From a candidate division TA06 bacterium DG_78 (GTDB lineage: Bacteria > Hydrothermota > Tepidihabitantia > SM23-42), in assembly GCA_001303225.1 (NCBI GenBank), contig LJNI01000026.1, positions 1-23,316 of the forward strand: 23,316 nt of DNA. The letters are read 5' to 3'. A program made the translations under genes and the position numbers. Positions 2,616 to 20,585 of the stretch are shown here, piece by piece. Numbering within the stretch: position 1 is the stretch's first letter; every line of letters starts with the position of its first letter. The notes beneath the pieces are model-generated. The model worked only from the letters and a program-made list of their open reading frames with translations. It searched no databases and was not told where the DNA came from.

Positions 2616-3257
2616 TCAATTAATAATCCCTAACCAGTCTCCTAATAAAAATTGTAATCGACCAATAAAGAGACTGATACGCGCCATTACTGTATAACCG
2701 AATGCTGCACCAAATCCAATCATAATGAAAATAATCCCAATTCTTGAGGTTACACCAAGTACACCTTTATGTTCTCTAGAAAAGTAGAAATAGGAGAGTG
2801 TACAGGCAACACCAATAAATAAAATAATTGACCAGACAATACCCATCGTACCAGCATTCCAGGTCTGAAAATTTTTAGAGGTTAAAATTGTGCCCTGGAT
2901 TTGCCTGATGATGTCAGCCTGAATAGTCGCAGGAATTGCTGCGCCCGTGCTGTACCCTATGCTGATGGCTATGGGAACACGTATAAGCCATGATATTCTT
3001 GGAATAAACCTTGTGAAATAGAGTGCTCCTATTATCAGTGCAATGATGAGCCACCACTGTCCTTGGAAGAGTACTGGTTTTAATGCCTCAGGCCACAGCA
3101 CACCATGCCACGTGATTGTCACAAGATAGCCATTTGAAACACCAACAAAAAGATGCTCGGCAAATTTGTAAAACGGATTGTCCTTATAGAGAAAAGAAAA
3201 TATGCACAAGGTGAGAAATGCACTTACCATTATCCAGAAGTCATATGAAATATTCAT
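2616..3257 (-). CDS. Module A gene 4: polytopic inner-membrane protein
   Basis: 213 residues, about six predicted membrane segments (near 8-24, 36-52, 68-86, 90-110, 138-158 and 172-196). Family not recognised. Invariant blocks across the three copies are FLYKDNPFYKFAEH near residue 22, TRFIPRISWLIR near 87, IQGTILTSKNFQ near 120, and GFGAAFGYTVMARISL near 180. Start ATG overlaps the stop of gene 3 by 4 bases (ATGA), so it is translationally coupled and last in the operon. The conserved aromatic/charged N-terminal block between two membrane segments would suit an interaction surface; that is inference. Copy A is the most diverged of the three. Confidence 0.8.
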   Translation of the reverse strand: MNISYDFWIMVSAFLTLCIFSFLYKDNPFYKFAEHLFVGVSNGYLVTITWHGVLWPEALKPVLFQGQWWLIIALIIGALYFTRFIPRISWLIRVPIAISIGYSTGAAIPATIQADIIRQIQGTILTSKNFQTWNAGTMGIVWSIILFIGVACTLSYFYFSREHKGVLGVTSRIGIIFIMIGFGAAFGYTVMARISLFIGRLQFLLGDWLGIIN

Positions 3258-4114
3258 TTTTTCCTCCTCATGAAATAACCCAAGTTGCCAATGATAATGA
3301 ATATCATAATGGTAAGATGTGCCGCGGTGAGAGAACCTAATGCCTCACTTGCCTTGCGCTTTCCCGATACCTTCAATTCTGATGCAACCATTTCTTCATA
3401 TTCTGCTGCGCCCTTCATGCCGACCATGAGTCCAGAAAACTGTCCGGTTTGAAAATAGATGAAGTAATCTGAAGCACTCACTGCGGTAAGACCAGCACCA
3501 ACTGCTACACCGTATCTCGTTTGTGAATAAGCAACCCACCACAGGGGCGCACTGCCACCACTTACCGAAACGAGGATCCCGACATTGTTGAAGTTCTTTA
3601 TACCTTCCATAACCGGCAGTGAGTCTGTTCTGTAACCATAGTAATCTGTTGTATAGACACCTGGAATGCTAATACCCATTTCTAAAAGAGGCACAATAGG
3701 TGGTGGCTGCCAGCCGAGCAATACATAATCACGTCCGTAGATAATGCTGTCAGCATTGGTCTGTGCCCGGGAATTGAATTCTTCAGATACCTGATCCAAT
3801 GCTTTTTTGGCAAGACCAAGTGGCTGGACATAGAGCGAAAGTGCCGCAACCCTGATGCGTTTTATGAATGCATGTCGCAAGAGTGCTATTGCCATTGGTT
3901 CATTTTCTGGTTGTGTCTGGGGGTCGTAGTCGAAGTCAATCATCAAGATTTTGTCTTCAGGGATAGAATCGACTGCATAAAAGAGCTTTTGTGCGGGTTC
4001 CATTACCCGGACCTTTTGTGGCTTGGGAAATACAAATGGCAGAATAATAACGATTGCGAGAATCAGGTAGATAATACGTCGGTCAATTTTTGCGAGATAT
4101 TCGAAAATTTTCAT
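3254..4114 (-). CDS. Module A gene 3: bitopic protein with large extracytoplasmic domain
   Basis: 286 residues. A positively charged N-terminus (KIDRR) precedes membrane helix 14-30. A ~230-residue soluble region follows, then a second helix near 262-280 and a basic tail (RRKK). By the positive-inside rule both ends are cytoplasmic and the middle lies outside the inner membrane. Conserved blocks in all three copies are IDFDYxPQ (59-66), LSLYVQPLGLA, YGRDYVxLGW, the SGG/LSP region, and GQFSGLMxGMKGAAEYE just before the second helix. Family not recognised; no catalytic motif could be assigned. The start overlaps the gene 2 stop by one base (TAATG). Confidence 0.8.
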   Translation of the reverse strand: MKIFEYLAKIDRRIIYLILAIVIILPFVFPKPQKVRVMEPAQKLFYAVDSIPEDKILMIDFDYDPQTQPENEPMAIALLRHAFIKRIRVAALSLYVQPLGLAKKALDQVSEEFNSRAQTNADSIIYGRDYVLLGWQPPPIVPLLEMGISIPGVYTTDYYGYRTDSLPVMEGIKNFNNVGILVSVSGGSAPLWWVAYSQTRYGVAVGAGLTAVSASDYFIYFQTGQFSGLMVGMKGAAEYEEMVASELKVSGKRKASEALGSLTAAHLTIMIFIIIGNLGYFMRRKK

Positions 4115-4773
4115 TATTTACCTCCGCCGAGCCAGGACCGTTCAATACCAAGGATGATTTTCAGTGCCGTAGCAATACTGCCGAGGGCAATACCAAATCC
4201 AATACCTCTCTTTGAAGCAACATTAGGAATGTTCATTATCCACTGAACAAATGAAGGCAGATGATGCGAGATTCTATCACCAAGCGGCAGGAGACCGAGC
4301 ATGACGATAAAGGCGGTTACAAGGAGCAGGGTTGCTTCTAATGATCGTGCCCTGAATGCTCGATATGATGCTGACGCCATGAAAAATGCCAATAATGCGA
4401 ACATTGTTGACCCTAAGGGAACGATAATATTCTCAAATAGTACCTGCGTATGAAATGTAAATGAACCAATACTCGTTGGAAGAATACCCTCACCAGTTCT
4501 GCCACCAAACAATCCGATAATTGAGGTTACAAAGAAACCGGCGATGAGGATATACGAATATGGCCAGTTTTCTCGCTTACGTTTGATTTTATCAAAATGT
4601 ACCTTTAACAGACTGCCGAGACCGAGGACAAGAGCAAATGCCGCGATTATCCTGATGAGGTCGGTTCTTATAAAACTCTCGCTGTTTTGCACAATTGGAT
4701 GCTGTGAATAATAGGGGATGATGCCAACAATACCAAAAATGAGAACCAATATAAGGGGGAGCCGTCTTTTCAT
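4114..4773 (-). CDS. Module A gene 2: six-helix membrane protein
   Basis: 219 residues with six likely membrane helices (about 5-21, 39-56, 72-90, 116-136, 147-163 and 192-208). Blocks invariant in the three copies are KIKRKRENW (62-70, strongly basic, presumably cytoplasmic), GEGxLPTxIGSF, FMASAxYRAFRARSxEATLLL spanning helices 4-5, LPLGxRIS, and the C-terminal ALKIILGIERSWLGGG. The last of these ends in a glycine-rich tail. It begins 12 bases after gene 1. No known transporter or enzyme family is evident to me. Confidence 0.8.
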   Translation of the reverse strand: MKRRLPLILVLIFGIVGIIPYYSQHPIVQNSESFIRTDLIRIIAAFALVLGLGSLLKVHFDKIKRKRENWPYSYILIAGFFVTSIIGLFGGRTGEGILPTSIGSFTFHTQVLFENIIVPLGSTMFALLAFFMASASYRAFRARSLEATLLLVTAFIVMLGLLPLGDRISHHLPSFVQWIMNIPNVASKRGIGFGIALGSIATALKIILGIERSWLGGGK

Positions 4774-4785
4774 TGTTACTCCTTT

Positions 4786-5871
4786 CTAGCTAAAAATATT
4801 CAGGATAGGAAAACGCGTTAACAAACCAATTATTGACGCAATACCAAGTGCCGCAAGAATCACAATTTTTCCGATGTCTTCACCTTTTATTGCACTCAGG
4901 AGCATCGGTTCTCTTGAAAGGTAAGCCGAAGCAGCGTAAAGCTCTTCGCCGATGATAGTGTAATCACAAGCCGTAACAAAAAAGGGAAGCTGACTTACAG
5001 AATCTGTGCCAGCAATTTGTATTGCGCCACTCAGTGCACCAGTTTCGGCGATAATCAACGATTCTGCCCTGAACCAACCGATTAAGAAATTGGCAGCTGG
5101 TTTATCACGAACCATGATGCCATCAATAGCAGCTGCATATGCGAATTGTGATTGTGTGACAAAAAAAACCTTGTCCGAATCAAAAAGGTCTGGCCTACCA
5201 ATGGATGCATATGATTCCTTGACGGTCTCTCTTGCCACAGTATAGACAATCGGATCAGAATGGGGCACAATGAGTGGTGTACCATACTGACCGGTTTTTT
5301 TCGCGACTTCTGCAAGAATATTAATTGATGCAATCGATGCAATATTGCTCATCGTACCGATCCCTATGACATACAATACTGGTTTGCCCATTTCAGTTGC
5401 CCGTCCCACTGCATCATCAACTGCATCCAATCCGGCAATCTTACGGATGAATAATTTTTTTCTTTTTCGTACCTGCATTATGAAAAATATTATAATGACA
5501 CTGAAAATAATCATCGCCAAAAATAGTACCGTGCTTCCCGAATCAAACCATTGAATGCTGCTCAGTACCGGTAGAGTGGTCTGTGAAAATATTCTGCTAG
5601 TATCTTTTAATGCCGCCACTTTATAAAAATATTCTTTACCATCTTCTGTTGCGTCTTCATATGATGTGCGGCCTTTACCAATGAAACCTACCATCTCAAA
5701 ATCAACTTCGTTCTCACAGCGGTAAATTTCATAACCATCGAGTATTGCATCATCCTGGGATAATTGCCACTGGATTGTGATTGAACTGCCGCCATCATCC
5801 GGAGTATCATATGCCTGAACGTCGGTTGGTGGTGCAATGGCAATTAACCCAATAAATAAAATTATGGTTAT
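4786..5871 (-). CDS. Module A gene 1: FnIII-TM-cytoplasmic domain protein, probable AUA start
   Basis: 361 residues if read from ATA at 5871-5869. A short hydrophobic signal (residues 2-13) is followed by one fibronectin type III domain (about 14-105, starting APPTDVQAYDTPDDGGSS). Then come a membrane helix (about 116-138), a basic stop (RKRKK), a ~190-residue domain (RKIAGLDAVDDAVGRATEMGKP..., GIMVRxKPAxNFLIGWF, GAIQIAGTD, ACDYTxIGEELYAASAY), and a C-terminal helix. The C-terminal domain resembles what I recall as DUF6754; unverified. The first ATG (5694) would delete the signal and most of FnIII. The frame upstream has no ATG, GTG, TTG or CTG up to the stop at 5893. AAAGGAGG lies 4 bases before ATA, exactly where copy B has ATG. 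Confidence 0.7.
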   Translation of the reverse strand: MTIILFIGLIAIAPPTDVQAYDTPDDGGSSITIQWQLSQDDAILDGYEIYRCENEVDFEMVGFIGKGRTSYEDATEDGKEYFYKVAALKDTSRIFSQTTLPVLSSIQWFDSGSTVLFLAMIIFSVIIIFFIMQVRKRKKLFIRKIAGLDAVDDAVGRATEMGKPVLYVIGIGTMSNIASIASINILAEVAKKTGQYGTPLIVPHSDPIVYTVARETVKESYASIGRPDLFDSDKVFFVTQSQFAYAAAIDGIMVRDKPAANFLIGWFRAESLIIAETGALSGAIQIAGTDSVSQLPFFVTACDYTIIGEELYAASAYLSREPMLLSAIKGEDIGKIVILAALGIASIIGLLTRFPILNIFS

Positions 5872-6011
5872 AAGACCTCCTTTATAAATAGTTTATGGTC
5901 TATGGTTAAGGTGCTGGATAAGCTAAATGCATGTTTTTTTCATCTCAATCATTCCTCTGTTCTTGTTCCAGCTTCCTGACCCTGACCCCTCAACCATTCT
6001 TGCAACGTAGT

Positions 6012-6039
6012 ATTATAATGGTGGTAAAAACTAAGTAAA
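6012..6039 (-). promoter_or_regulatory. Promoter of module A
   Basis: On the minus strand TTTACT and TATAAT are separated by 16 bases. The surrounding bases (CTCTTTACTTA, then TTTTTACC in the spacer) match the module B promoter, so it is supported by comparison between copies. The leader would be about 135 bases. Confidence 0.7.
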
Positions 6040-6159
6040 GAGTTTTATTAATTTAAAAAATGGGGTGAATAATGATACAGTCTAAAATCTTACAATAAAG
6101 TAATTAAGGCAATTCAGGGCGATTAAAGACGATTAAACCCTATTTACAATTGACTTTTA

Positions 6160-6203
6160 TTATTACGAATACGAATTACGAAAAACGAATACGATTAAAT
6201 TTT
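6160..6203. repeat. ATTACGAATACG repeat (copy behind module B)
   Basis: Short direct repeats of ACGAAT/TACGAA, ending in the 18-base core shared with 2576-2593 behind module A. In both places it is followed by CTCC/TGTC-rich sequence and then the stop of gene 4, so the module tails share this element. Confidence 0.5.
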
Positions 6204-6230
6204 ATCTCCTTGTCACCCAGTCTCTTCGTC

Positions 6231-6872
6231 TCAGTCGATGATCCCGAGCCACGGTCCTAAGATGAACTGTAATCGTCCGATCAATAGACTGATTCGTGCC
6301 ATCACGGTGTAGCCGAATGCAGCACCAAATCCGATCATGATAAAGATAACACCAATTCGTGAAGCGACACCGAGGACGCCTCTATGTTCACGTGAAAAGA
6401 AGAAATAAGCGAGTGTACAGAAAACACCAATAAAGAGGATTATCGACCAGACAATACCCATGCTTCCAGCATTCCATGCCTGAAAATTCTGAGACGTGAG
6501 CAGTGTTCCTTGAATTTGTTTGATGATGAATGCCTGGACATTAGAGGGGATCGAAGTGCCCATACTATAACCTAACGAGATACCAATAGGAATGCGGACG
6601 AGCCACGATATTTTTGGAATAAAGCGTGTGAAGTAGAGGCATCCGATGACTAATGGAATTATGAAAAACAGTCTTCCCTGACGAAACAGAGGATCAAAAA
6701 GAGACGGTGCAAGAACATTATGCCAGTAGAAGGTCACTGCCCACCCATTTGCCGCACCAACAAAAATATGCTCGGCAAACCGGTAAAATGGATTATCTCT
6801 GTACAAAAATGAGAATATTGCGAGGCTCATGAGTGCACTGATCCATATCCAGGGTTCAGGTGAGAGATTCAT
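6231..6872 (-). CDS. Module B gene 4: polytopic inner-membrane protein
   Basis: 213 residues, the same length and topology as copies A and C. The N-terminal block FLYRDNPFYRFAEHIFVG and the C-terminal block GFGAAFGYTVMARISLLIGR are nearly unchanged. Differences from copy C cluster in predicted membrane helices with conservative swaps. The start overlaps gene 3 by 4 bases (ATGA). Family not recognised. As the last gene of the module it is followed by the AT-rich ATTACGAATACG repeat and no clear terminator. Confidence 0.8.
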   Translation of the reverse strand: MNLSPEPWIWISALMSLAIFSFLYRDNPFYRFAEHIFVGAANGWAVTFYWHNVLAPSLFDPLFRQGRLFFIIPLVIGCLYFTRFIPKISWLVRIPIGISLGYSMGTSIPSNVQAFIIKQIQGTLLTSQNFQAWNAGSMGIVWSIILFIGVFCTLAYFFFSREHRGVLGVASRIGVIFIMIGFGAAFGYTVMARISLLIGRLQFILGPWLGIID

Positions 6873-7732
6873 TTTGACCTCCTTTTGATGAGGTAACCAA
6901 TATTACCGATAACAATGAAGACAATGATTACGAGGTGTGCATAGGTCAGTGATGGGAGTGCTTCACTCGCCTTCCGCTCCCTTTTGATGTTTAATTCTCT
7001 TTCAATTATCTCTTCATACTCTGCAGCACCTTTCATTCCTATCATCAATCCAGAAAATTGACCAGACTGGAGATACGGATAGAACTCTGAGGCAGATACT
7101 GCAGTAACTCCAGCACCAATTGGTAAGCCAAATTTACTCTGGGCAAATTGTACCCACCATTTAGGCGGATTGCCACCACTGAGCGAGATAAGAAGTCCAA
7201 CGTCATTGTAATTCTTAATAGAGCGCATTAATTCTAAGGTATCAGTCCTGTTGCCGTAGTAATCAACTTGATACACATTTGTGATACTCTCACCCATCCC
7301 AAGGATTGGAATAATCGGTGGTGGTACCCAGCCCAGAAATACATAGTCACGACCGTAGACAATACTGTCTTCGTGCGTTTGTGCTTCGCTATTGTATTCT
7401 TCGATGACCTCGGTTAATGCCTTCTGGGCAAGACCGAGTGGTTGAACATAGAGGCTAATTACAATCAGCTTTACTCGTGTCTTAAAGACGTGGCGCAGCA
7501 GCGCGAATCCCATTGGATCGAGTTCAGGTGCGGTCTGCGGTGCATAATCAAAATCAATGATCAATGCCTTTTCTTCAGGGATATTTTCTATTGCATTGAA
7601 GAGTTTTTCTACTGGAGCCATGACCCGTACCTTTTCTACTGACGGTACTATCAATGGCAAAGCAACCACTACTATGAGAATGAGGTATATGATACGACGG
7701 TCGATTTTCGTCAATCTATCGATTATCTTCAT
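6869..7732 (-). CDS. Module B gene 3: bitopic protein with large extracytoplasmic domain
   Basis: 287 residues: KIDRR plus an N-terminal helix (14-30), a soluble region, and a second helix near 263-281 with tail KRRSK. It keeps IDFDYAPQ, ISLYVQPLGLA, YGRDYVFLGW and GQFSGLMIGMKGAAEYEE. The aromatic WW and SGGxPPKWW around residue 185 parallels SGGSAPLWW in copy A, while copy C reads SPSDIPRYW there, so this loop is the most variable part of the soluble region. The start overlaps gene 2 by 4 bases. Function unknown. Confidence 0.8.
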   Translation of the reverse strand: MKIIDRLTKIDRRIIYLILIVVVALPLIVPSVEKVRVMAPVEKLFNAIENIPEEKALIIDFDYAPQTAPELDPMGFALLRHVFKTRVKLIVISLYVQPLGLAQKALTEVIEEYNSEAQTHEDSIVYGRDYVFLGWVPPPIIPILGMGESITNVYQVDYYGNRTDTLELMRSIKNYNDVGLLISLSGGNPPKWWVQFAQSKFGLPIGAGVTAVSASEFYPYLQSGQFSGLMIGMKGAAEYEEIIERELNIKRERKASEALPSLTYAHLVIIVFIVIGNIGYLIKRRSK

Positions 7733-8391
7733 TCACCACCTCCACCAAGCCATGACCGCTCTATGCCCAAAATTATCTTGAGTGCAGTTGCAAGTATACC
7801 AAAGGCAACACCGATGAGAATACCCCTCTGACCAGCAACATTCGGTACATCCATAATCCACTGTGCGAATGACGGAAGGTGAGGCGATATTCTATCACCA
7901 AGCGGTAAGACACCGAGCATAACGATAAATGCTGAGGCTAAGAGTAAGGTTGCCTCAGTAGAACGGGCGCGGAATGCACGATACGCAGCCGATGCCATGA
8001 AAAAGGCGAGTAATGCAAACATGGTTGAACCGAGCGGTACAATAACATTATCGTAAATAGTTTGATTATCAAAACTGAAGGAACCAATACGTGTGGGCAG
8101 AGGACCTTCTCCTGTGACACCGCCAAAGAGACCAATAATTGAAGTAATGATAAAGACGATGATTAACACCCATGAATATTGCCAGTTCTCGCGTTTGCGC
8201 TTTATCTTATCCATGTGTACCTTTAGTAAGCTACCGAGACCAAGGACGAGGGCAAATGCTGCTAGAATTTTTAAAAGATTATTACGAAAGAAATTATCAG
8301 TATCCTGGACAACTGGATGAGGGGCAAAGTATTGTATGATACCAAGAATACCGCAGATAAATACAAGAATTAATGGTAATCCTTTTTTCAT
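7729..8391 (-). CDS. Module B gene 2: six-helix membrane protein
   Basis: 220 residues, colinear with copies A and C. It has the basic KIKRKRENW loop, GEGPLPTRIGSF, FMASAAYRAFRARSTEATLLL and the C-terminal GIERSWLGGGGE. It begins 8 bases after gene 1 and overlaps gene 3 by 4 bases. Helices lie at about the same positions as in copy A. Not recognised as a known transporter; the conserved acidic and arginine residues near helix ends are the main candidate functional positions. Confidence 0.8.
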   Translation of the reverse strand: MKKGLPLILVFICGILGIIQYFAPHPVVQDTDNFFRNNLLKILAAFALVLGLGSLLKVHMDKIKRKRENWQYSWVLIIVFIITSIIGLFGGVTGEGPLPTRIGSFSFDNQTIYDNVIVPLGSTMFALLAFFMASAAYRAFRARSTEATLLLASAFIVMLGVLPLGDRISPHLPSFAQWIMDVPNVAGQRGILIGVAFGILATALKIILGIERSWLGGGGE

Positions 8392-8399
8392 TTCTCCCC

Positions 8400-9488
8400 C
8401 TACTTAAATAGATTCAGGATTGGTAATTTAGTTAAGAGACCGATTATCGAACCAGCAATTAGGGCTGCACCAATGATGAGTTTCCCTAAATCTTCACCTT
8501 TTATTGCACCTAAAAGGAGCGGTTCCTTAGAAATATACGCAGATGCGGCATAAAGTTCTTCACCAATCAAGGTGTAATCACAGGCGGTGATAAAGAATGG
8601 TAGCTGTGGCACCCTATCAGTACCCGCAATCTGAATTGCACCAGTCGATGCACCTGTTTCAGCCAAGATTAATGACTCTGCCATAAACCAACCAATTAAA
8701 AAATTGGTCGCAGGTTTTTCTCTCACCATAATGCCGCTGACTGCTGCTGCATAGGCAAACTGCAGATCAGTAATAAAATAGACACTATCAGGGTCAAAGG
8801 CATCGGGTCTACCAACTTGCGTGTAGGATTCTTTAACAACTTCTCTCGCTACAGTATAGACAATTGGATCAAGATGCGGATTAATAAGTTGTGTGTCATA
8901 TCGAGCACACTTTTTTGCAATCTCGCCAAGGATATTGAGTGAGGCAATAGTAGCAATGTCTCCAATGAGACCGGTTCCAGTAGTATACAAAATCGGTTTA
9001 CCCATTTCGGTGGCACGGCCCACCGCATCATCGATTGCCTGTAAACCGGCGATCTTTCGTATGTACAATTCTTTTCCCTTGCGGGCATGATACACAAAGT
9101 ACAAAATGAGACCACCGAAGATGACACATGCAATAAGAATATTTAATTTTGGTAGATCGAACCATTGAGGACTACTCATCACAGGTTGCGACGCTTGAGA
9201 ATACATTTTTAGTGTATCTTTTAGGGCGACAACCTTATAGAAATAGTTCTCACCATCTTCTGTATTGCTATCTTCGTATCTTGTACGGTTCCTTCCGATA
9301 AAACCTACCTTTTCATAAACATCACCATCATTGCTTCTGTATATTTCATACCCATCAAGAATTGCATCATCTTGAGATAGGTGCCATTCGACCATTATTG
9401 AACCACCACCGTCATCAGGAGTATCATAGGCTCGCACATGAGTTGGAGGTGCGACGCCTATGAGTCCAATTAATAAAATTACCGCCAT
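8400..9488 (-). CDS. Module B gene 1: FnIII-TM-cytoplasmic domain protein
   Basis: 362 residues from ATG 9488, with AAAGGAGG 4 bases upstream and an in-frame TAG just before, so this start is secure and calibrates copies A and C. Order: hydrophobic signal (2-13), FnIII (about 14-106, starting APPTHVRAYDTPDDGGGS, with LDGYEIYRS and YFYKVVAL), membrane helix (~118-138), and a cytoplasmic-side domain. That domain holds IRKIAGLQAIDDAVGRATEM, GRPDAFDPDSVYF, AYAAAVSGIMVREKP, GASTGAIQIAGTD and YTLIGEELYAASAYIS. A last helix near the C-terminus ends LNLFK. It has one extra residue relative to A and C at SNTEDG. A sensor or scaffold role is only inference from FnIII outside and a conserved domain inside. 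Confidence 0.85.
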   Translation of the reverse strand: MAVILLIGLIGVAPPTHVRAYDTPDDGGGSIMVEWHLSQDDAILDGYEIYRSNDGDVYEKVGFIGRNRTRYEDSNTEDGENYFYKVVALKDTLKMYSQASQPVMSSPQWFDLPKLNILIACVIFGGLILYFVYHARKGKELYIRKIAGLQAIDDAVGRATEMGKPILYTTGTGLIGDIATIASLNILGEIAKKCARYDTQLINPHLDPIVYTVAREVVKESYTQVGRPDAFDPDSVYFITDLQFAYAAAVSGIMVREKPATNFLIGWFMAESLILAETGASTGAIQIAGTDRVPQLPFFITACDYTLIGEELYAASAYISKEPLLLGAIKGEDLGKLIIGAALIAGSIIGLLTKLPILNLFK

Positions 9489-9540
9489 GACTCCTCCTTT
9501 CTAATAAAATTACAATGTGATATAGTCTGCTTTGTATATT

Positions 9541-9568
9541 ATTATAACTGAGGTAAAAGATAAGTAAA
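9541..9568 (-). promoter_or_regulatory. Promoter of module B
   Basis: Minus-strand TTTACT and TATAAT are separated by 16 bases, the same hexamers, spacing and part of the spacer (TTTTACC) as before module A. The leader is about 47 bases. Confidence 0.75.
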
Positions 9569-9694
9569 GAGGGTTATGTTGAAATAATTTTCTACTTACT
9601 ATCTACGAACTATTTTTTCCCCAATTATTCACACAAAATTATTGTTGCAAGCAAATTCCACATCCCGATGCAATGTAAATCATGGGAAAAACAG

Positions 9695-9714
9695 AGTGTC
9701 AAAATTTCGACACT
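9695..9714 (-). terminator. Possible weak terminator of module C
   Basis: AGTGTC/GACACT pair with an AAA/TTT inner part and one mismatch. Leftward the hairpin is followed by CTGTTTTTCC. It is a weak stem 65 bases after the stop, so the call is tentative. Confidence 0.35.
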
Positions 9715-9778
9715 ATAAGAATCCGTTTCATAATTGTCTTTGAGTAAAATTGGAAAAAATGAATATGAATAATCGGGG

Positions 9779-10420
9779 CTAGTGAATTACTCCTAACCAA
9801 TCTCCGAGGAGGAATTGTAGTCTTCCAATCAAAAGACTGATTCGTGCCATAACCGTATAACCAAATGCCGCACCAAATCCGATCATGACAAAGATAATAC
9901 CAATTCGTGATGTTATACCGAGTACGCCTTTATGTTCCTTTGAAAAATAGAAATAAGAGAGCGTGCAGATCACACCGACAAAGAGAATAATTGACCAAAC
10001 AACACCCATGTTTCCTGCGTTCCACGCCTGGAAATTCTGAGAAGTGAGAATCGTTCCCTGAGTTTGTTTTATGATATATGCCTGGACATCAGCCGGTATA
10101 GATGCCCCGACATAGTAGCCCATAGTAATGCCGATGGGAATTCGTACAAGCCAGGAAACCCTTGGAATGAAACGCGTGAGATAGAGAATTCCGATGATAA
10201 AGGGAATGATTAAGAGAAGTTGTCCCCGACGAAACAGCGGGTCAAAAAGCGAGGGAACAAGAATATTGTGCCAGTAGAATGTTACTGCCCAGCCATTTGC
10301 AACCCCGACAAAGATATGTTCGGCAAATCTATAGAAAGGGTTATCTCTATAGAGAAAAGAGAAGATGGATACAGTCAACAGTGCACTAATCCATATCCAG
10401 GGATCAAGCGAGATATTCAT
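9779..10420 (-). CDS. Module C gene 4: polytopic inner-membrane protein
   Basis: 213 residues, closest to copy B in the N-terminal third (PWIWISALL, NGWAVTFYWHN, SLFDPLFR). In the middle it shares some residues with copy A instead (TCTLSYFYFS-like, EHKGVLG). The same conserved blocks are present: FLYRDNPFYRFAEHIFVGV, TRFIPRVSWLVR and GFGAAFGYTVMARISLLIGR. It overlaps gene 3 by 4 bases. Family unknown; membrane topology as in the other copies. Confidence 0.8.
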   Translation of the reverse strand: MNISLDPWIWISALLTVSIFSFLYRDNPFYRFAEHIFVGVANGWAVTFYWHNILVPSLFDPLFRRGQLLLIIPFIIGILYLTRFIPRVSWLVRIPIGITMGYYVGASIPADVQAYIIKQTQGTILTSQNFQAWNAGNMGVVWSIILFVGVICTLSYFYFSKEHKGVLGITSRIGIIFVMIGFGAAFGYTVMARISLLIGRLQFLLGDWLGVIH

Positions 10421-11280
10421 TTCTGCCTCCTTTTGACAAAGTGGCCAATATTGCCGATAATAATAAAGGCAATTATCAACAGATGGGCGTACGTTATTGA
10501 GGGTAATGATTCACTTGCCTTTCTTCTCCCTGCTACACTCAATTCTTTTTCAACCATCTCTTCATACTCTGCAGCGCCTTTCATGCCAATCATCAGTCCT
10601 GAGAATTGACCGGTTTGCAAATAGGGATAAAACTCTGATGCCGATACCGAGGTTACGCCTGCACCAACTGCGACACCAAATCTATTCTGGGCATAAGCAA
10701 CCCAATATCGAGGAATATCACTGGGGCTGAGTGCAGCGACAATGCCAACATTGTTGTAATTTTTAATATGCTTCATTAATAAAAGGGTATCAGTTCGATT
10801 ACCATAATAATCGATATTATAGAAATTTGTGATGCTTTCGCCCATACTCAACATGGCAAGAATTGGTCCAACTTGCCAACCTAAAAATACATAGTCCCTT
10901 CCATAGATAATGCTATCAGCACTGGTCTCTGCGGTGCTATTAAATTCTTCGGTGACCTGAGTTAATGCCCTCTGGGCAAGGCCGAGCGGTTGCACATAGA
11001 GGCTCAATGCCAGCACCTTAATTCTTTTCTTAAAAGCATGGCGTAATAGGGCGATTGCCATGGGCTCGAGTTCTGGCATATCCTGCGGAGTATAATCAAA
11101 GTCTATGATCAATGCTTTTTCTTCGGGAATGTTGTCCACCGCATTGAAGAATTTTTCCACGGGTGGCATTACCCTGACTGATTGTGCTGAGGGAAATATT
11201 AACGGTAAGATTACCACTACCAATAGGATGAGATAGATGATACGGCGATCGATTTTTGCTAATATATCAATTATTTTCAT
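10417..11280 (-). CDS. Module C gene 3: bitopic protein with large extracytoplasmic domain
   Basis: 287 residues with KIDRR and an N-terminal helix, an extracytoplasmic region and a C-terminal helix (about 262-280, tail KRRQK). IDFDYTPQ, LSLYVQPLGLA, YGRDYVFLGW and GQFSGLMIGMKGAAEYEEM are kept. Two places differ from A and B: the proline run after LGW is missing (QVGPILAML here, PPPI in the others), and the SGG-WW loop reads SPSDIPRYW. If this domain binds a ligand or partner, copy C may have a different specificity; that is inference. Both ends overlap neighbours by 4 bases. Confidence 0.8.
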   Translation of the reverse strand: MKIIDILAKIDRRIIYLILLVVVILPLIFPSAQSVRVMPPVEKFFNAVDNIPEEKALIIDFDYTPQDMPELEPMAIALLRHAFKKRIKVLALSLYVQPLGLAQRALTQVTEEFNSTAETSADSIIYGRDYVFLGWQVGPILAMLSMGESITNFYNIDYYGNRTDTLLLMKHIKNYNNVGIVAALSPSDIPRYWVAYAQNRFGVAVGAGVTSVSASEFYPYLQTGQFSGLMIGMKGAAEYEEMVEKELSVAGRRKASESLPSITYAHLLIIAFIIIGNIGHFVKRRQK

Positions 11281-11942
11281 TCACCACCTCCGCCGCCGAG
11301 CCAGGAGCGTTCAATTCCAAGAATTATCTTTAATGCAGTAGCGAGCATACCTAGAGCAACACCAAACAGAATACCTCTTTGAGCGGCAACATTAGGTACA
11401 TCCATAATCCACTGTGTAAACGATGGGAGATGATGAGAGATTCTCTCGCCGAGCGGCAATACGCCAATCATTATTATAAATGCAGAAACCAGAAGTAGGG
11501 TTGCTTCAGAAGAACGAGCGCGAAATGCCCGATACGCAGCTGATGCCATAAAAAATGCCAATAGTGCAAACATGGTGGCACCGAGTGGCACTTCAATATT
11601 GAAATAGAGTGTCCAGATGTCAAATGAAAATGAACCGATTCTTGTTGGTAAGATACCTTCTCCAGTGACTCCGCCAAACAGCCCAATAATTGAAGTGATT
11701 ATAAAAGTAATTATCAATACCCAGGAATATTGCCAATTTTGCCGTTTGCGTTTTATCTTATCCATATGTACCCGCAAAAGACTGCCGAGACCGAGAATAA
11801 GGGCAAAGGCAGCCAGAATTTTTAAAAAAACATTGAGAAGAAAATTGTTGGTATCTTGAACAATTGGATGAGGGACAATAAATGGTATAATGCCGAGAAT
11901 GCCGAAAATAAACAAAAGAAATAAAGGAAAGGTTTTTTTCAT
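11277..11942 (-). CDS. Module C gene 2: six-helix membrane protein
   Basis: 221 residues, colinear with the other copies: KIKRKRQNW basic loop (Q replaces E), GEGILPTRIGSF, FMASAAYRAFRARSSEATLLL, LPLGERIS and C-terminal ERSWLGGGGGE. The glycine tail grows from three (A) to four (B) to five (C) residues. It starts 9 bases after gene 1 and overlaps gene 3 by 4 bases. Confidence 0.8.
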   Translation of the reverse strand: MKKTFPLFLLFIFGILGIIPFIVPHPIVQDTNNFLLNVFLKILAAFALILGLGSLLRVHMDKIKRKRQNWQYSWVLIITFIITSIIGLFGGVTGEGILPTRIGSFSFDIWTLYFNIEVPLGATMFALLAFFMASAAYRAFRARSSEATLLLVSAFIIMIGVLPLGERISHHLPSFTQWIMDVPNVAAQRGILFGVALGMLATALKIILGIERSWLGGGGGE

Positions 11943-11951
11943 TTTATCCTC

Positions 11952-13037
11952 CTATCTAAAAAGGTTGAGTATTGGAAGTGTTGTGAGAAGACCGATGATG
12001 GAAGCGGCAATTAATATACCAACAATTACAAGTTTTCCTGAGTCTTCACCTTTAATTGCACCTAAGAGTATTGGCTCTTTAGATATATATGCTGAGGCAG
12101 CGTAGAGTTCTTCACCAATTAATGTATAATCACATGCCGTAACAAAAAATGGGAGTTGCGATACTTGATCGGTGCCCGCAATTTGAATCGCTCCGGTCGA
12201 TGCACCAGTTTCTGCCAGAATCAACGATTCTGCTCGGAACCACCCAATGAGAAAATTTGTTGCTGGTCTTTCACGTACCATTATGCCATCGACTGCTGCA
12301 GCATAAGCAAACTGTAAATCAGTAATAAAATAGACACTGTCCGGATCAAAGGCGTCTGGTCTGCCAGCCTGTGTATATGCTTCTTTGACGATTTCTCGCG
12401 CTACAGTATAGACAATCGGTTCAACATGTGGGTTGATGAGTTTGGTGTCATATTGAGCACATTTCTTTGCAACCTCACCGAGAATGCTCAGTGAGGCGAT
12501 GGTGGCAATATCCTCCATATAACCGATCCCAGGACAGTATAAAATCGGTTTACCCATTTCTGTGGCGCGTCCTATTGCATCATCAATTGCCTGCAACCCA
12601 GCGATTTTCCTTATATAGAGCTCCTTACCTTTTCGTGCATGATAGGTAAAGTAAAGAATGAAAGCACCGAATATTATAATTGCTATAATAATGTTGATTT
12701 TGTTCCGATCAATCCACTGAGCACTGCTCATTACCGGTTTTGAGGTTTCAGAGTAAACTTTCATCGTATCTATGAGTGCCGCAATTTTGTAAAAATAGTT
12801 TGTACCATCTTCAGTTTCATCTTCGTACATTGTGCGACCTTTTCCAATAAAACCCACCCTTTCATAGTCAACATTATCTTCACTGCGATATATTTCGTAT
12901 CCATCAAGATACGCATCGTCTGGAGATAATTGCCATTGAATAGTAACTACGCCACCACCATCGTCAGGCGTATCAGAGGCGTACACATCTGTTGGTGGTG
13001 CAATAGCAACCATCAGTGCAACTACAATGAAGATTAT
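11952..13037 (-). CDS. Module C gene 1: FnIII-TM-cytoplasmic domain protein, probable AUA start
   Basis: 361 residues if read from ATA at 13037-13035. The hydrophobic signal, FnIII (APPTDVYASDTPDDGGGV...), helix, conserved domain (GRATEMGKP, GRPDAFDPDSVYF, GIMVRERPATNFLIGWF, GASTGAIQIAGTD) and last helix are colinear with copy B. The first ATG (13013) would cut the signal down to five residues; a CTG precedes it. GGGGG lies 4 bases before the ATA, the same spacing as in A and B. The ATA overlaps the stop of the upstream nuclease gene as ATAA, the analogue of the usual ATGA coupling. Its own upstream promoter has apparently been separated or lost. Confidence 0.7.
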   Translation of the reverse strand: MIFIVVALMVAIAPPTDVYASDTPDDGGGVVTIQWQLSPDDAYLDGYEIYRSEDNVDYERVGFIGKGRTMYEDETEDGTNYFYKIAALIDTMKVYSETSKPVMSSAQWIDRNKINIIIAIIIFGAFILYFTYHARKGKELYIRKIAGLQAIDDAIGRATEMGKPILYCPGIGYMEDIATIASLSILGEVAKKCAQYDTKLINPHVEPIVYTVAREIVKEAYTQAGRPDAFDPDSVYFITDLQFAYAAAVDGIMVRERPATNFLIGWFRAESLILAETGASTGAIQIAGTDQVSQLPFFVTACDYTLIGEELYAASAYISKEPILLGAIKGEDSGKLVIVGILIAASIIGLLTTLPILNLFR

Positions 13038-13444
13038 ACTACCCCCTTGCTTAATAAAATACCCTCTCCTCTTTGAGGAGAGGGATAGGGTGAGGAGTTG
13101 TTAATCTGTAACTGTCTGAGAATATCATGTAATACTCCATCCAAATTATTTAAAATATCACTGTTTGAATATCTGAGAATACGCAATCCAGATTTTTTTA
13201 GATATTTTTCACGTATCTTGTCTCGATAACAACCTTTTATAGAGTAATGCTGACCACCATCAATTTCAATGGCTATCTGTTTTTGAGGGCAATAGAAATC
13301 GAGGAAATAGGGTCCAAAAGGGGCCTGCCGGCGAAATTTGAGGTTAATGAGTTGTCTATTTCTTAATTTATACCACATCTTTCTTTCGGCATCAGTCATA
13401 TTTTGCCGAAGTTTACGTGCTCGTGTGACTATGTGCTTTCCCAA
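13034..13444 (-). CDS. DUF559 / Vsr-like endonuclease-fold protein
   Basis: 136 residues from TTG 13444. GGTGAGGG, part of the flanking repeat, serves as ribosome site, and a stop lies two codons upstream. The N-terminus (ARKLRQNMTDAERKMWYKLRN) is typical of DUF559, as is the core FLDFYCPQKQIAIEIDGGQH (D49, E60, D62, H66), which matches the PD-(D/E)XK-like/Vsr nuclease fold. Later residues (RDKIREKYLKKSGLRILRYSN) fit the family too. The last ~23 residues (SSPYPSPQRGEG...) are encoded by the left-end hairpin repeat and are not part of the fold. Its stop overlaps the start of module C gene 1. Function of the family is poorly known; a role in mobility or DNA repair is inference. Confidence 0.8.
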   Translation of the reverse strand: MGKHIVTRARKLRQNMTDAERKMWYKLRNRQLINLKFRRQAPFGPYFLDFYCPQKQIAIEIDGGQHYSIKGCYRDKIREKYLKKSGLRILRYSNSDILNNLDGVLHDILRQLQINNSSPYPSPQRGEGILLSKGVV

Positions 13445-13582: not shown

Positions 13583-13873
13583 TTACCCATCTTCTCTACA
13601 AATGCACGGTGTTTTACCGCATTTCGGACATCCGTTAGCATATTTTTTCATCGTTTCTTCAGCATCGATATCGAGGAGTGAGCCGATTGATAAGAGCCAG
13701 GCAAGGCAATCAGCGAATTCTTTTTCTGTTTTTTCCTTATCCCCTTTTCTCATTGCTCGCGAAAATTCACCAATCTCTTCAATGAACCAGTTGAAAGTTT
13801 TGTGTAATCCTCTTTGTGAATCTTTTCTAAAATATAATTTTTCAATGAGTTTCTGGTATTGTTTTAAATCCAC
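13583..13873 (-). CDS. MazG-like nucleotide pyrophosphohydrolase with cysteine-rich tail
   Basis: 96 residues from GTG 13873; no clear ribosome site, but the start matches the family's usual N-terminus. The MazG fold signature is present: E32-E33-x-x-E36 on one helix and E52-x-x-D55 on the next, which together bind Mg2+ and nucleotide. Such enzymes hydrolyse NTPs or dNTPs to NMP and pyrophosphate as house-cleaning. A tail CPKCGKTPCIC (82-92) adds four cysteines, probably a metal-binding knuckle seen in some short MazG proteins. It lies 138 bases upstream of the nuclease gene on the same strand and may share a transcript with module C. Confidence 0.75.
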   Translation of the reverse strand: MDLKQYQKLIEKLYFRKDSQRGLHKTFNWFIEEIGEFSRAMRKGDKEKTEKEFADCLAWLLSIGSLLDIDAEETMKKYANGCPKCGKTPCICREDG

Positions 13874-13956: not shown

Positions 13957-15609
13957 TTAATCAAAATGCAATGTTGCAGAGAGTTCCCAGCTCGTCATAT
14001 CAGTGAGCTTGGTAAAGCCCATGAAGTCGAGCTGCAGATTATCATTGACCTTCCAGCCGACACCAAAGGCATAGTTTGTACTGGACGTTGTCGTCTCGAT
14101 CGTTTCGATTGAACTCGGTATATCACCAGAGTCTTGATAATATGTCGTGTCTACACCACTACCCCATTCCTCGTGAACCGTCGTCGGGTCATAAGCAACC
14201 ATCTCGTCTGTATACGTCATATCGCTAAACTGTAATCTGTGCGTGGCACCGAGCCTGACGCACAATTTAGGATTGATAACGTAGAATTCAACCCCGACTG
14301 GGAATGCAAATGACATCGTACTGCCATCAGTCATGCAGACCCAGGTTTCACTCGAGGTGACTGTCCGGACATAATCGTAATCGTTGGTAGTCGTGTCAGC
14401 TGTATCATAATCCTCAACACCGACCATATTGTGAACTTCTAAGGTCGAATCGAAGACTGTTGAGCTGTTCCAAATAACGCCGAAGCCGAGGTTGAGTCTG
14501 TCATTGACATTGAAGAGCTGGTGGGTTCCAACCGTGATGGTATTATTACTACCCTCGCCTGTATAGGTGGTCCAGGTCGTGTCGTAGCGCCAGGTTGAAT
14601 CGGTGTAGATATCTTCACTCATCATATTCACAAAGTCTATTGCACCTTCTGTATAACTATGTGATTGCATGGTGTAGCCAACCCAGAATCTTCCCTGGGC
14701 AGTCTCAGTGTAGTCGTAGAAGAGTGCGAGACGCACAGGAATCCGTGTGCCTGACTCTGGCGTATCGAGTGAATCATACAGCGATGCAATTGTGTAGTCA
14801 CCACCTAAGCTGTCATCTGGATCAGCAGTAAAATGATAGACTACTGAATCGCCGATAATGAGTGCCTCAGTATCCCAGTTAAACATGCCATAACCACCCA
14901 TGAGTCCGAGACTCCAGCCTTCAGTATCATACCAGAAGCTGAGTCTGAACTCATTGTCAGCAGAACTGAAGATTTCATCACCAACTGCAGATGCCCTTTC
15001 TATGAAGAAGGGTCCATCAGTTAAATCTTCTGCTACGAGGTCGTAGTTGAAGTTGTTTTCCGGGTCAGTGTAGGTATTTTTGGATTCTTGGCGCATAAAT
15101 CCGACACCGAATCTCCAGCCCTCTGCTTGGTAACCAATACCAGCATAGTAATCTGCGATGTCATTTTTATCATACGCAACGCGTCGTTCGGTTTCAGTGG
15201 TCTGGGCATCGATGTCGCCATCATTATCAACATCTTGCCAGGTTACTGTTGACACTTCACCTTCGCCATAGATGAGGCCCTCGAATGGATCTTCGAGACC
15301 AGTGAAGAGGGCATCCTTCATGCTGCTTCTGTCAATGACAGCGGCAGGAAAGAGACCCATGAAGTGAGTCGAACCACCGAGCAGCATAAATGGTACACTG
15401 CCATTCGAGAAGAGGTTCTCACCTCCGGTCACAAAGTTCGACAGACCAGTCCAGACCCTCGAGCCTTCAATCTCTGGGATTCGTGCTGGATCAAAGATGA
15501 GATCATAATCATCTTCCCAGAGATTAGCGGTTGATTGATACCTGAATGACCATGGTATCAATGCAAAGGATAGCGATACTGCTATTGCTAAGACTATGAC
15601 AACTTTCAT
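13957..15609 (-). CDS. Predicted outer-membrane beta-barrel protein
   Basis: 550 residues from ATG 15609 with AAGGAGG 5 bases upstream. A signal peptide (about 1-17) is followed by an N-terminal segment (FDPARIPEIEGSRVWTGLSN) and many alternating amphipathic strands rich in Y, W, T and D. The last strand reads LSATLHFD, so the usual terminal aromatic is one residue from the end. Acidic composition and repeated aromatic girdles suggest a long-chain or porin-like barrel such as the FadL/UPF0164-like groups, but I cannot assign a family. It is monocistronic, with its own consensus promoter and terminator, suggesting an abundant protein. Confidence 0.7.
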   Translation of the reverse strand: MKVVIVLAIAVSLSFALIPWSFRYQSTANLWEDDYDLIFDPARIPEIEGSRVWTGLSNFVTGGENLFSNGSVPFMLLGGSTHFMGLFPAAVIDRSSMKDALFTGLEDPFEGLIYGEGEVSTVTWQDVDNDGDIDAQTTETERRVAYDKNDIADYYAGIGYQAEGWRFGVGFMRQESKNTYTDPENNFNYDLVAEDLTDGPFFIERASAVGDEIFSSADNEFRLSFWYDTEGWSLGLMGGYGMFNWDTEALIIGDSVVYHFTADPDDSLGGDYTIASLYDSLDTPESGTRIPVRLALFYDYTETAQGRFWVGYTMQSHSYTEGAIDFVNMMSEDIYTDSTWRYDTTWTTYTGEGSNNTITVGTHQLFNVNDRLNLGFGVIWNSSTVFDSTLEVHNMVGVEDYDTADTTTNDYDYVRTVTSSETWVCMTDGSTMSFAFPVGVEFYVINPKLCVRLGATHRLQFSDMTYTDEMVAYDPTTVHEEWGSGVDTTYYQDSGDIPSSIETIETTTSSTNYAFGVGWKVNDNLQLDFMGFTKLTDMTSWELSATLHFD

Positions 15610-15770: not shown

Positions 15771-17015
15771 GTGCTTAATATTATTGACATTCCAATAGAA
15801 ATAGATAAAATTTTTGATATGGAAATGCCTGTTAGCTTAATGGTGACAATATTAGGGTTTATTGCTCTTATTGCGATTATACTCTTGATTACAACTGCGG
15901 CAATTTCTAAGACGAGAGCACATACTATCAGACAAATGAAAAAACAGTATGGTACCCTCGAAGATGAGCTGAAAAGACAACGTGAGGATAATCTTCTGAT
16001 GAGGAATGAATCGAAGCGAATAAATAAACTAGACCTTCTCTTTTCATCATCGATGATACGACTCACTGAAATATTAAACCCAATAGAAATTGCAAAGACT
16101 GCTCGAGATTTTTTACGTGAGTATTTGGATGCGAGAGAGATTGCAGTCTTTTTCTGGGATGCACAGAATAAGCGGTTGTATGTCGTTACTCAATATGGCC
16201 TCAATGAGAACTGGCTACCAAAACTTCTCTATAATTTAGGAGATGGAAGAGTCGGCGTGACTGCTGAAAAACGGTTACCCGTGGGCAACCGAGAAGCTGA
16301 AATGTTGCGAGTACAAGAACCCTACCCGATATTCAAGCCAGACATCTGTTATCCTGTTGTTTTCCATGATAACCTCTATGGTGTTATTGCAATTGGTCGG
16401 GATGCAGATTTTAAAGAACGCGAGAAAAATTTGCTCGGTGTTGTTTCAAAAATTGCTGCTGTGTCGCTCAAAAATACGTGGGATCTCAAAGTGTTCCAAA
16501 ATCTTGCATCCATTGATCCCTTAACAAAAATATTTAACGTAGGCTATTTTAAAGACCGACTTCAGGAAGCGTTAATCGAAGCAAAAAAATTACGACGTGA
16601 CTTGTCGATAGCAATTATCGATCTCGACAAATTTAAAAATTATAACGATACATTCGGTCATCAAGCTGGCGACAAACTACTCATTGACCTGGCAAAAATT
16701 TTTGCCAAGTATTTTTATAAACCCTCAATCTTTGCCCGATACGGCGGTGATGAATTTATTGTCATGTGTCCAAATAGCAAGAAAAAAAATGTTGCTGATA
16801 TATTGAATATCCTTTTGCGAGAACTGGATAAGGCTGATTTTGTCCGTGTAAAAGAGGGGGAGAGAGTAACCTTTTCAGCGGGCATCTCATCATATCCTGA
16901 AGATGGAAATACAATGGTTGAATTAATCAAGGCTGCTGATGAAGCTCTCTATGTAGCAAAGGGAGCTGGGAGAAATAAGATTCAGCTCTACGTCCGAGAC
17001 ACTGGGAAGAAGTAA
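15771..17015 (+). CDS. Membrane-anchored GAF-GGDEF diguanylate cyclase
   Basis: 414 residues from GTG 15771 (AGAGG ten bases upstream); ATG 15819 is an alternative and would leave only four residues before the helix. One membrane helix (about 21-45), a basic/coiled-coil linker (50-80), a GAF-like sensor domain (about 90-235), and a GGDEF domain (about 245-410). The active-site motif YGGDEF is intact (324-329), as are DLDKFKNYNDTFGHQAGD and AADEALYxAK. It should make cyclic di-GMP from two GTP. The usual inhibitory RxxD site before the motif reads YKPS, so product feedback through that site is probably absent. It is first of a rightward gene run; hypD follows after 67 bases. Confidence 0.9.
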   Translation: MLNIIDIPIEIDKIFDMEMPVSLMVTILGFIALIAIILLITTAAISKTRAHTIRQMKKQYGTLEDELKRQREDNLLMRNESKRINKLDLLFSSSMIRLTEILNPIEIAKTARDFLREYLDAREIAVFFWDAQNKRLYVVTQYGLNENWLPKLLYNLGDGRVGVTAEKRLPVGNREAEMLRVQEPYPIFKPDICYPVVFHDNLYGVIAIGRDADFKEREKNLLGVVSKIAAVSLKNTWDLKVFQNLASIDPLTKIFNVGYFKDRLQEALIEAKKLRRDLSIAIIDLDKFKNYNDTFGHQAGDKLLIDLAKIFAKYFYKPSIFARYGGDEFIVMCPNSKKKNVADILNILLRELDKADFVRVKEGERVTFSAGISSYPEDGNTMVELIKAADEALYVAKGAGRNKIQLYVRDTGKK

Positions 17016-19399: not shown

Positions 19400-19438
19400 G
19401 GATGTGGTCAGTAACCACATCCACGAGAGGAGGATGTG
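19400..19438 (+). promoter_or_regulatory. Possible RNA switch at the sucC ribosome site
   Basis: GGATGTGG (19400-19407) pairs perfectly with CCACATCC (19415-19422). The same CACATCC can instead pair with GGATGTG (19432-19438), which overlaps the Shine-Dalgarno end and the start region. The two stems exclude each other, one exposing and one blocking the start. Confidence 0.35.
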
Positions 19439-20569: not shown

Positions 20570-20585
20570 CTGAAAGGAGCAACAG

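What the first reader, a model, noticed from the sequence alone, without database searches (positions are those of the whole stretch)
2616..13037. Undescribed four-gene membrane module in three tandem copies
Seen: the order FnIII-TM-domain protein, 6-TM protein, bitopic protein with big extracytoplasmic domain, polytopic protein is repeated three times with nearly identical lengths and 1-4 base overlaps. I recognise none of genes 2-4; gene 1 ends in a domain I recall as DUF6754 (unverified). Fixed stoichiometric order and coupling suggest one membrane complex. It has an outer FnIII sensor or adhesion part, a large extracytoplasmic subunit and a conserved inner domain, with three paralogous versions kept in parallel, as for different ligands or conditions. 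The loop differences in gene 3 of copy C fit that idea.
Basis: partly seen in the sequence, partly recalled or inferred. Interest (0 to 1): 0.85.

Follow-up and report, generated by a model that had tools for sequence, protein, structure and literature searches.

The report
Undescribed seven-gene bacterial membrane machine
Three back-to-back copies of a four-gene membrane complex belong to a larger, so far undescribed system, seemingly served by a shared ATPase pair, found in several little-studied bacterial phyla; what it does in the cell envelope is still unknown.

Summary
Three tandem four-gene copies (FnIII-TM-DUF6754 protein, polytopic, bitopic alpha/beta, polytopic) lie at 2616-13013 in a candidate phylum WOR-3 genome, 62-83% identical. 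The genome has six such modules. The module has a cytosolic side outside the window: a GlmL/MutL-like ASKHA ATPase, a 375-residue protein X (weak barrel-sandwich and KOW signals) and a small protein S. In some Planctomycetota, Elusimicrobia and WOR-3 genomes the seven genes lie together as S-mutL-X-g1-g2-g3-g4. In 79 Planctomycetota genomes g1 and g3 co-occur (22 both, 1 g3 only), and both track X and MutL, with exceptions. A paralogous MutL-X pair is fused in two genomes. WOR-3 genomes usually keep one full X but up to seven DUF6754 genes; module types have different envelope neighbours (SLBB export protein; ExbB-ExbD-TonB). MutL scores below GlmL cut-offs, and no mutase E subunit exceeds its cut-off in 100 WOR-3 genomes. 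No known system matched in Pfam, NCBIfam, PADLOC or PDB sequences. Best reading: an ATPase-served inner-membrane envelope complex with interchangeable membrane modules. The gene set is well supported; cargo and chemistry are inference.

The parts
11952..13013 (-). copy C gene 1: FnIII - TM - DUF6754 - TM (353 aa)
11277..11942 (-). copy C gene 2: polytopic membrane protein, about 6 TM (221 aa)
   Evidence: hydropathy and conservation; no Pfam family over its cut-off; no PDB sequence match at E<=1
10417..11280 (-). copy C gene 3: TM - alpha/beta domain - TM (287 aa), domain predicted extracytoplasmic
9779..10420 (-). copy C gene 4: polytopic membrane protein, 5-6 TM (213 aa)
   Evidence: hydropathy; no Pfam hit; no PDB sequence match at E<=1
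8400..9488 (-). copy B gene 1 (362 aa)
   Evidence: PF20539 E 2.4e-114
7729..8391 (-). copy B gene 2
   Evidence: 83% identical to C gene 2
6869..7732 (-). copy B gene 3
   Evidence: 71% identical to C gene 3
6231..6872 (-). copy B gene 4
   Evidence: 78% identical to C gene 4
4786..5868 (-). copy A gene 1; the full frame appears to start at an ATA codon (5868) after AAAGGAGG; first ATG at 5694
   Evidence: N-terminus compared by eye with ATG-started orthologues; PF20539 E 6.6e-111
4114..4773 (-). copy A gene 2
   Evidence: 72% identical to C gene 2
3254..4114 (-). copy A gene 3
   Evidence: 68% identical to C gene 3
2616..3257 (-). copy A gene 4
   Evidence: 73% identical to C gene 4
13583..13873 (-). 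MazG-like NTP pyrophosphohydrolase (PF03819), a recurrent leader gene of modules
   Evidence: PF03819 E 3e-08; same family just upstream of g1 in L102, L104, L106, L107, and with one gene between in L097 (Pfam checked for L102 only). L104, L106 and L107 carry modules of another clade
13957..15609 (-). 550 aa predicted outer-membrane-type protein; similar gene beside this module type in L097 and L102
   Evidence: (family F21) against the window ORF, matched by eye; no Pfam hit

Best explanation
The four genes encode one inner-membrane complex of diderm bacteria. g1 has an FnIII domain outside and the conserved DUF6754 alpha/beta domain inside; g3 carries an alpha/beta domain outside between two TM helices; g2 and g4 form the membrane core. 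The complex is served from the cytoplasm by a shared pair, a GlmL-superfamily ASKHA ATPase (MutL) and protein X (an RnfC/NqrA-like barrel-sandwich hybrid plus a KOW-like end, both weak signals), with the small protein S. ATP binding and hydrolysis by MutL, relayed by X to the cytoplasmic DUF6754 domain, would drive or gate an envelope process (transport, assembly or tethering towards the outer membrane). Each membrane module would be an interchangeable unit for a different envelope partner; the window holds three related units of one type. Shown: the gene set, order, co-occurrence, MutL-X fusion in a paralogous pair, one X against many modules, one case of a module replaced as a block. Inferred: physical complex, topology, ATPase activity, energy transfer. 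Guessed: the envelope process and its cargo.
For: Order S-mutL-X-g1-g2-g3-g4 in Planctomycetota (L074, L075, L077; L086 up to g3 at the contig end), Elusimicrobia (L027) and WOR-3 (L110 with two tandem modules; L127 likewise). Co-occurrence in 79 Planctomycetota genomes, as both/first only/second only/neither: g1-g3 22/0/1/56 (p 1e-18), g1-X 19/3/2/55 (p 3e-13), g3-X 20/3/1/55 (p 1e-14), X-MutL 20/1/3/55 (p 1e-14). One planctomycete (G130, 6.4 Mb) has g1-X, MutL and g3 at three distant places yet keeps all four. MutL-X paralogue fused into one ORF in L113 and L119 (Pfam on L113). ASKHA phosphate motifs intact in all 8 system MutL proteins aligned. X is one full-length gene in G073, G085, G097 and G099 against 6-7 DUF6754 hits. 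Stable module types: SLBB leader (5 loci, one clade) and DUF4388 ... ExbB-ExbD-TonB. In L095 that second operon holds a module of another lineage, and all four genes agree on it.
Against: No activity, localisation or structure of a complex is known. The fold of DUF6754 was not tested (FnIII filled the hit list). In the window's genome mutL (C48) and X (C108) lie on other contigs than the modules, and X is the direct upstream neighbour of g1 in only 3 of 59 WOR-3, 10 of 23 Planctomycetota and 1 of 5 Elusimicrobia g1 genes. Co-occurrence is imperfect: 3 Planctomycetota genomes have g1 and g3 but no X; 4 have g3 but no MutL and 4 MutL but no g3 (a few of the X and MutL hits are fragments). In WOR-3, G006, G019 and G057 have X without DUF6754 and G037, G049 and G086 the reverse. 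Some of these genomes are incomplete, but G037 and G086 are 94% complete. Genome relatedness was not corrected for in the Fisher tests. The envelope role rests on neighbours only.
Confidence: 0.45

Rival explanations
1. One reading: a self-contained four-subunit sensor or adhesion complex, kept in three versions for three ligands.
For: FnIII outside by prediction; orthologues of copy A form a clade over several genomes, so A and B/C are old, kept duplicates.
Against: Does not account for MutL, X and S, which cluster and co-occur with the module. No signalling output domain found in g1-g4. A, B and C share one neighbourhood.
Confidence: 0.15
2. A membrane anchor for an actin-like (ASKHA) scaffold: MutL acts as cytoskeletal or polarity element and the module as its envelope tether, perhaps linked to a motility or positioning apparatus with ExbB/ExbD motors.
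For: MutL is ASKHA. DUF4388 (which I recall as the PATAN domain) and MotA/ExbB-ExbD-ExbD genes follow one module type. PATAN genes lie near some MglA and MglB genes (PMC4316618, passages seen).
Against: The two proteins between DUF4388 and the small membrane proteins gave no Roadblock match in Pfam or PDB sequences. TonB at the end of that operon points to ordinary TonB energisation. Seen in one operon type only.
Confidence: 0.2
3. MutL and X are a chaperone or activase pair of B12 or CoA metabolism (as GlmL is annotated) and their linkage to the module is incidental.
For: MutL matches GlmL models, though below cut-off.
Against: Glutamate mutase E over cut-off in 0 of 100 WOR-3 genomes (15 weak hits below it) although X hits are in 94 of 100. 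Linkage repeats in WOR-3, Planctomycetota, Elusimicrobia and FCB.
Confidence: 0.1

Closest known systems
DUF6754 (Pfam PF20539)
   Same: g1 is a clear member (E<=1e-110)
   Different: Pfam gives no function; gene order, partners and FnIII fusion are described here; no paper with this name in the held library
GlmL / methylaspartate mutase accessory protein family (PF13941, TIGR01319)
   Same: MutL is in the Pfam family (E 3e-125)
   Different: below the NCBIfam cut-offs (229 of 475; 171 of 204 bits); about 600 aa with a C-terminal extension; no mutase E over cut-off in 100 WOR-3 genomes
RnfC / NqrA N-terminal barrel-sandwich hybrid
   Same: X of L026 passes the RnfC_N (28.3 of 25.6 bits) and Biotin_lipoyl (23.3 of 22.1) cut-offs
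   Different: X of the window's own genome gives only weak hits; Rnf or Nqr subunits were not searched for; no invariant hairpin lysine for a cofactor in 7 aligned X (by eye)
Systems with a cytoplasmic actin-like subunit under inner-membrane proteins (PilM/GspL of type IV pili and type II secretion; recalled)
   Same: works-like resemblance only: ASKHA protein plus inner-membrane proteins with an extracytoplasmic domain
   Different: relation not tested; pilin or secretin genes were not searched for. By eye one PilT-like ORF lies about 3 kb from the module in L101
CODH/ACS epsilon subunit fold (9c0t_C)
   Different: no Foldseek match at E<=0.001; common alpha/beta arrangement; g3 is membrane-bound; no functional inference

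Membership tests
DUF6754 (PF20539) | score over the curated cut-off (27 bits) | tested here: met
   370-385 bits for copies A, B, C
Fibronectin type III | FnIII fold at the N-terminus of g1 | tested here: met
GlmL equivalog (methylaspartate mutase accessory protein) | score over NCBIfam NF040745 cut-off (475) | tested here: not met
   229.2 bits
GlmL equivalog (methylaspartate mutase accessory protein) | mutase E subunit in the same genomes | tested here: not met
   PF06368 over cut-off in 0 of 100 WOR-3 genomes; 15 of 100 have weak hits below cut-off
ASKHA ATPase | PF13941 match and conserved phosphate motifs | tested here: met
   DCGSTTTK, DIGGATTD and GSGG identical in 8 of 8 system MutL proteins; the meaning of the motifs is recalled; activity not testable
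RnfC/NqrA subunit | barrel-sandwich domain over cut-off | tested here: inconclusive
   over cut-off in L026, not in L027, L067 or L063
Known anti-phage defence | match to PADLOC-DB models | tested here: not met
   none for g1-g4, MutL, X, S or the MazG-like protein at E<=0.001 (the DUF559 protein beside them does match nuclease models)
Myxococcus-type Mgl/Agl gliding or polarity apparatus | Roadblock/LC7 MglB-like protein in the DUF4388 operon | tested here: inconclusive
   no Pfam match; no PDB sequence match in the family
TonB/ExbB/ExbD energisation | ExbB, ExbD and TonB genes in one operon with a module | tested here: met
   PF01618 and PF02472 in L101, PF03544 in L098, operon layout; one operon type only, not the window's

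The most novel reading that the evidence does not exclude
A wide-spread, undescribed envelope machine of diderm bacteria in which one cytoplasmic ASKHA ATPase-adaptor pair (MutL-X) powers many interchangeable four-subunit membrane modules, each plugged into another envelope pathway, perhaps with distantly related alpha/beta domains facing each other across the membrane.
Probability: 0.25. Interest if true: 0.88.

Novelty: categorically new. Interest (0 to 1): 0.7.

Why it matters
DUF6754 is a domain without a function, present in 94 of 100 sampled WOR-3 genomes, and its g3 partner has thousands of homologues (3185 at E<=0.001). Among the best 120 homologues listed in each of two searches are proteins named from Nitrospira, Nitrospinae, Methylomirabilis (NC10), Latescibacteria, Elusimicrobia and Planctomycetota. 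Tying the domain to three membrane partners, an ATPase and an adaptor turns an orphan domain into a seven-component system with clear tests. If modules really are exchangeable units on a shared ATPase, that is an unusual design for an envelope machine.

Tried and rejected
Known complex by sequence: Pfam, NCBIfam and PADLOC for g1-g4 and PDB sequences for g2, g3, g4, X and MutL gave nothing beyond DUF6754, FnIII, MutL and weak signals. For X the best PDB hits were N-acetylmannosamine-6-phosphate epimerases at E 0.003-0.005 and SPT5 KOW at 0.08-0.09. For the g1 profile A7 the only PDB hit was an exopolygalacturonase over the N-terminal part. Weak hits such as PMP22_Claudin or DUF373 for g2 are below cut-off and were not used.

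Homology of the g1 and g3 alpha/beta domains: the order of helices and strands looks alike in the two models but profile comparison found only a TM stretch. Left open. g2 and g4 likewise showed no relation.

Cofactor on X: lipoate-protein ligase-like genes lie beside modules in L110 and L112, L126 and L127; Pfam was run on L112 only. X has no invariant hairpin lysine. Set aside.

Roadblock/polarity link: I first read two downstream proteins as Roadblock-like; searches do not support this, and I withdrew it.
Full report

Where it lives. The best relatives are candidate division WOR-3 / Stahlbacteria genomes. The window's genome has seven DUF6754 hits, but two lie at contig ends whose sequences overlap with one mismatch (by eye; the script's exact-match test found no overlap), so I count six modules; the gene-3 search also finds six. 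DUF6754 is in 94 of 100 WOR-3 genomes, with 1-7 hits each, in 22 of 79 Planctomycetota, in 5 of 60 Elusimicrobia and in none of 14 well-known control genomes.

The module is a unit. After removing duplicates, g2-g3-g4 follow g1 in order in 52 of 58 testable WOR-3 loci, 17 of 19 Planctomycetota, 5 of 5 Elusimicrobia and 2 of 2 FCB. The exceptions are in L009, L015 (two pieces of g1), L111, L125, L126, L076 and L085. In L111 other ORFs lie between g2 and g3; L085 is a false exception caused by an overlong g1 ORF, as g2-g3-g4 do follow there; L009 looks like a remnant with a short g2. Most gene gaps are 15 bases or less (69, 71 and 65 of 77). Distance matrices of the four genes correlate at r 0.88-0.94 over 77 modules; within 53 WOR-3 modules none of 999 permutations reached the observed value for any of the six pairs. 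In 79 Planctomycetota genomes g1 occurs in 22 and g3 in the same 22 plus one.

There is more to it than four genes. In Elusimicrobia (L027) and part of the Planctomycetota the module follows a PF13941 (MutL) gene and a gene X of about 372-381 aa. X is the direct upstream neighbour of g1 in 10 of 23 Planctomycetota, 1 of 5 Elusimicrobia and 3 of 59 WOR-3 g1 genes, so in most WOR-3 loci the two sets are unlinked. MutL and X were found in 8 of 8 genomes first tested, the window's own included. A small protein S of roughly 90-150 aa lies just upstream of mutL, or of g1 in L090-L092 (a few ORFs there are overlong by their start). WOR-3 genomes G013 and G020 keep S-mutL-X-(g1-g4)x2 (L110; L127). Fisher tests on presence in 79 Planctomycetota genomes: g1-X p 3e-13, g1-MutL p 6e-10, X-MutL p 1e-14, g3-X p 1e-14, g3-MutL p 7e-11. 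These do not correct for kinship. In WOR-3 X hits are in 94 of 100 genomes (in G025 only paralogue-like fragments). Comparing, three genomes lack both X and DUF6754 (G003 and G016, 94-95% complete and of one genus, and G051), three have X only (G006, G019, G057) and three DUF6754 only (G037, G049, G086).

MutL and X belong together. A paralogous pair lies side by side in L114-L118 and L120 and is fused into one ORF in L113 and L119 (Pfam on the L113 fusion). The stretches fetched around the pairs hold no module (one weak g1 hit, E 1e-4, in L117). System MutL proteins keep the ASKHA phosphate motifs (8 of 8) but the window genome's MutL falls below NCBIfam GlmL cut-offs, and glutamate mutase E is over cut-off in 0 of 100 WOR-3 genomes. 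X has barrel-sandwich signals (RnfC_N and Biotin_lipoyl over cut-off in L026; Biotin_lipoyl over cut-off in the paralogue of L114; weak in others) and a weak KOW signal at its end.

One apparatus, many modules. In G073, G085, G097 and G099 there are 6-7 DUF6754 hits against one X; G069 has two full X and G091 a split one. A tree of concatenated modules shows stable types. The window's copy A has orthologues in other genomes, so the triplication is old. The type on C119 (L028) forms one clade with L094, L096, L099 and L100; all five have a gene of one family in front, which is SLBB/Poly_export by Pfam in L028 and L099. The type on C54 (L031) forms a clade with L093, L098 and L101. It is followed by DUF4388 and two unknown proteins in all four; in L031, L098 and L101 by two small proteins and ExbB; in L098 and L101 by ExbD; and in L098 by TonB (Pfam for L031, and for L101 and L098). 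L031 and L101 end there. L095 has the same downstream operon but its module is of another lineage for all four genes, as if swapped as a block. The window's triplet has a MazG-like gene in front (13583-13873), as have L097 and L102; so do L104, L106 and L107, whose modules are of another clade.

Likely working. The best-supported picture is an inner-membrane complex with a cytoplasmic ATPase and adaptor. The envelope role is inferred from neighbours (SLBB export, TonB-dependent receptor and patatin-Omp85 near one type; ExbB/ExbD/TonB after another) and from the named homologues listed, which are phyla that I recall as diderm. Cargo and chemistry are unknown; I put 0.45 on the overall explanation, most of the doubt lying in the mechanism and not in the gene set.

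Novelty. DUF6754, PF20539 and PF13941 occur in no paper of the held library; papers outside it and supplements were not searched. I found no known system with this set of parts, so I file it as categorically new, with the reservation that it is a computational description only.

Noticed in passing
window 5866-5868: Copy A gene 1 appears to start at ATA after a good AAAGGAGG site; orthologues start with ATG at this place. Rare start codon or sequence error.
   Followed up: partly
window 13034-13444: DUF559 endonuclease-like protein (PF04480 E 3e-34) sits between gene 1 of copy C and the MazG-like gene; other loci have no gene or another one there.
   Followed up: partly
L113 8760-11612, L119 5686-8562: MutL and X paralogues fused in one ORF; unfused pairs in L114-L118 and L120 with no module in the fetched stretch. 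A second MutL-X system.
   Followed up: partly
L095 7145-10441: Module in the DUF4388-ExbB-TonB operon is of another lineage in all four genes, as if exchanged as a block.
   Followed up: yes
L121, L122, L123: In Elusimicrobia the module lies beside genes that look like complex I / group 4 hydrogenase subunits and a parvulin-like protein (by eye).
   Followed up: no
L110, L112, L126, L127: Lipoate-protein ligase-like gene next to the modules (PF21948 for L112; others by eye).
   Followed up: partly
L101 2320-3584 and L031 2297-3533: Two conserved proteins between DUF4388 and small membrane proteins, without Pfam or PDB family match.
   Followed up: partly
L101 10533-11567: PilT-like ORF (by eye) about 3 kb from a module.
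   Followed up: no
L009 8055-9491: Third tandem module reduced to g1 and a short g2, a likely remnant.
   Followed up: no
window 17083-18216, 19436-21458, 15771-17015: By eye: HypD-like gene, succinyl-CoA synthetase subunits, a GGDEF protein. Not checked.
   Followed up: no
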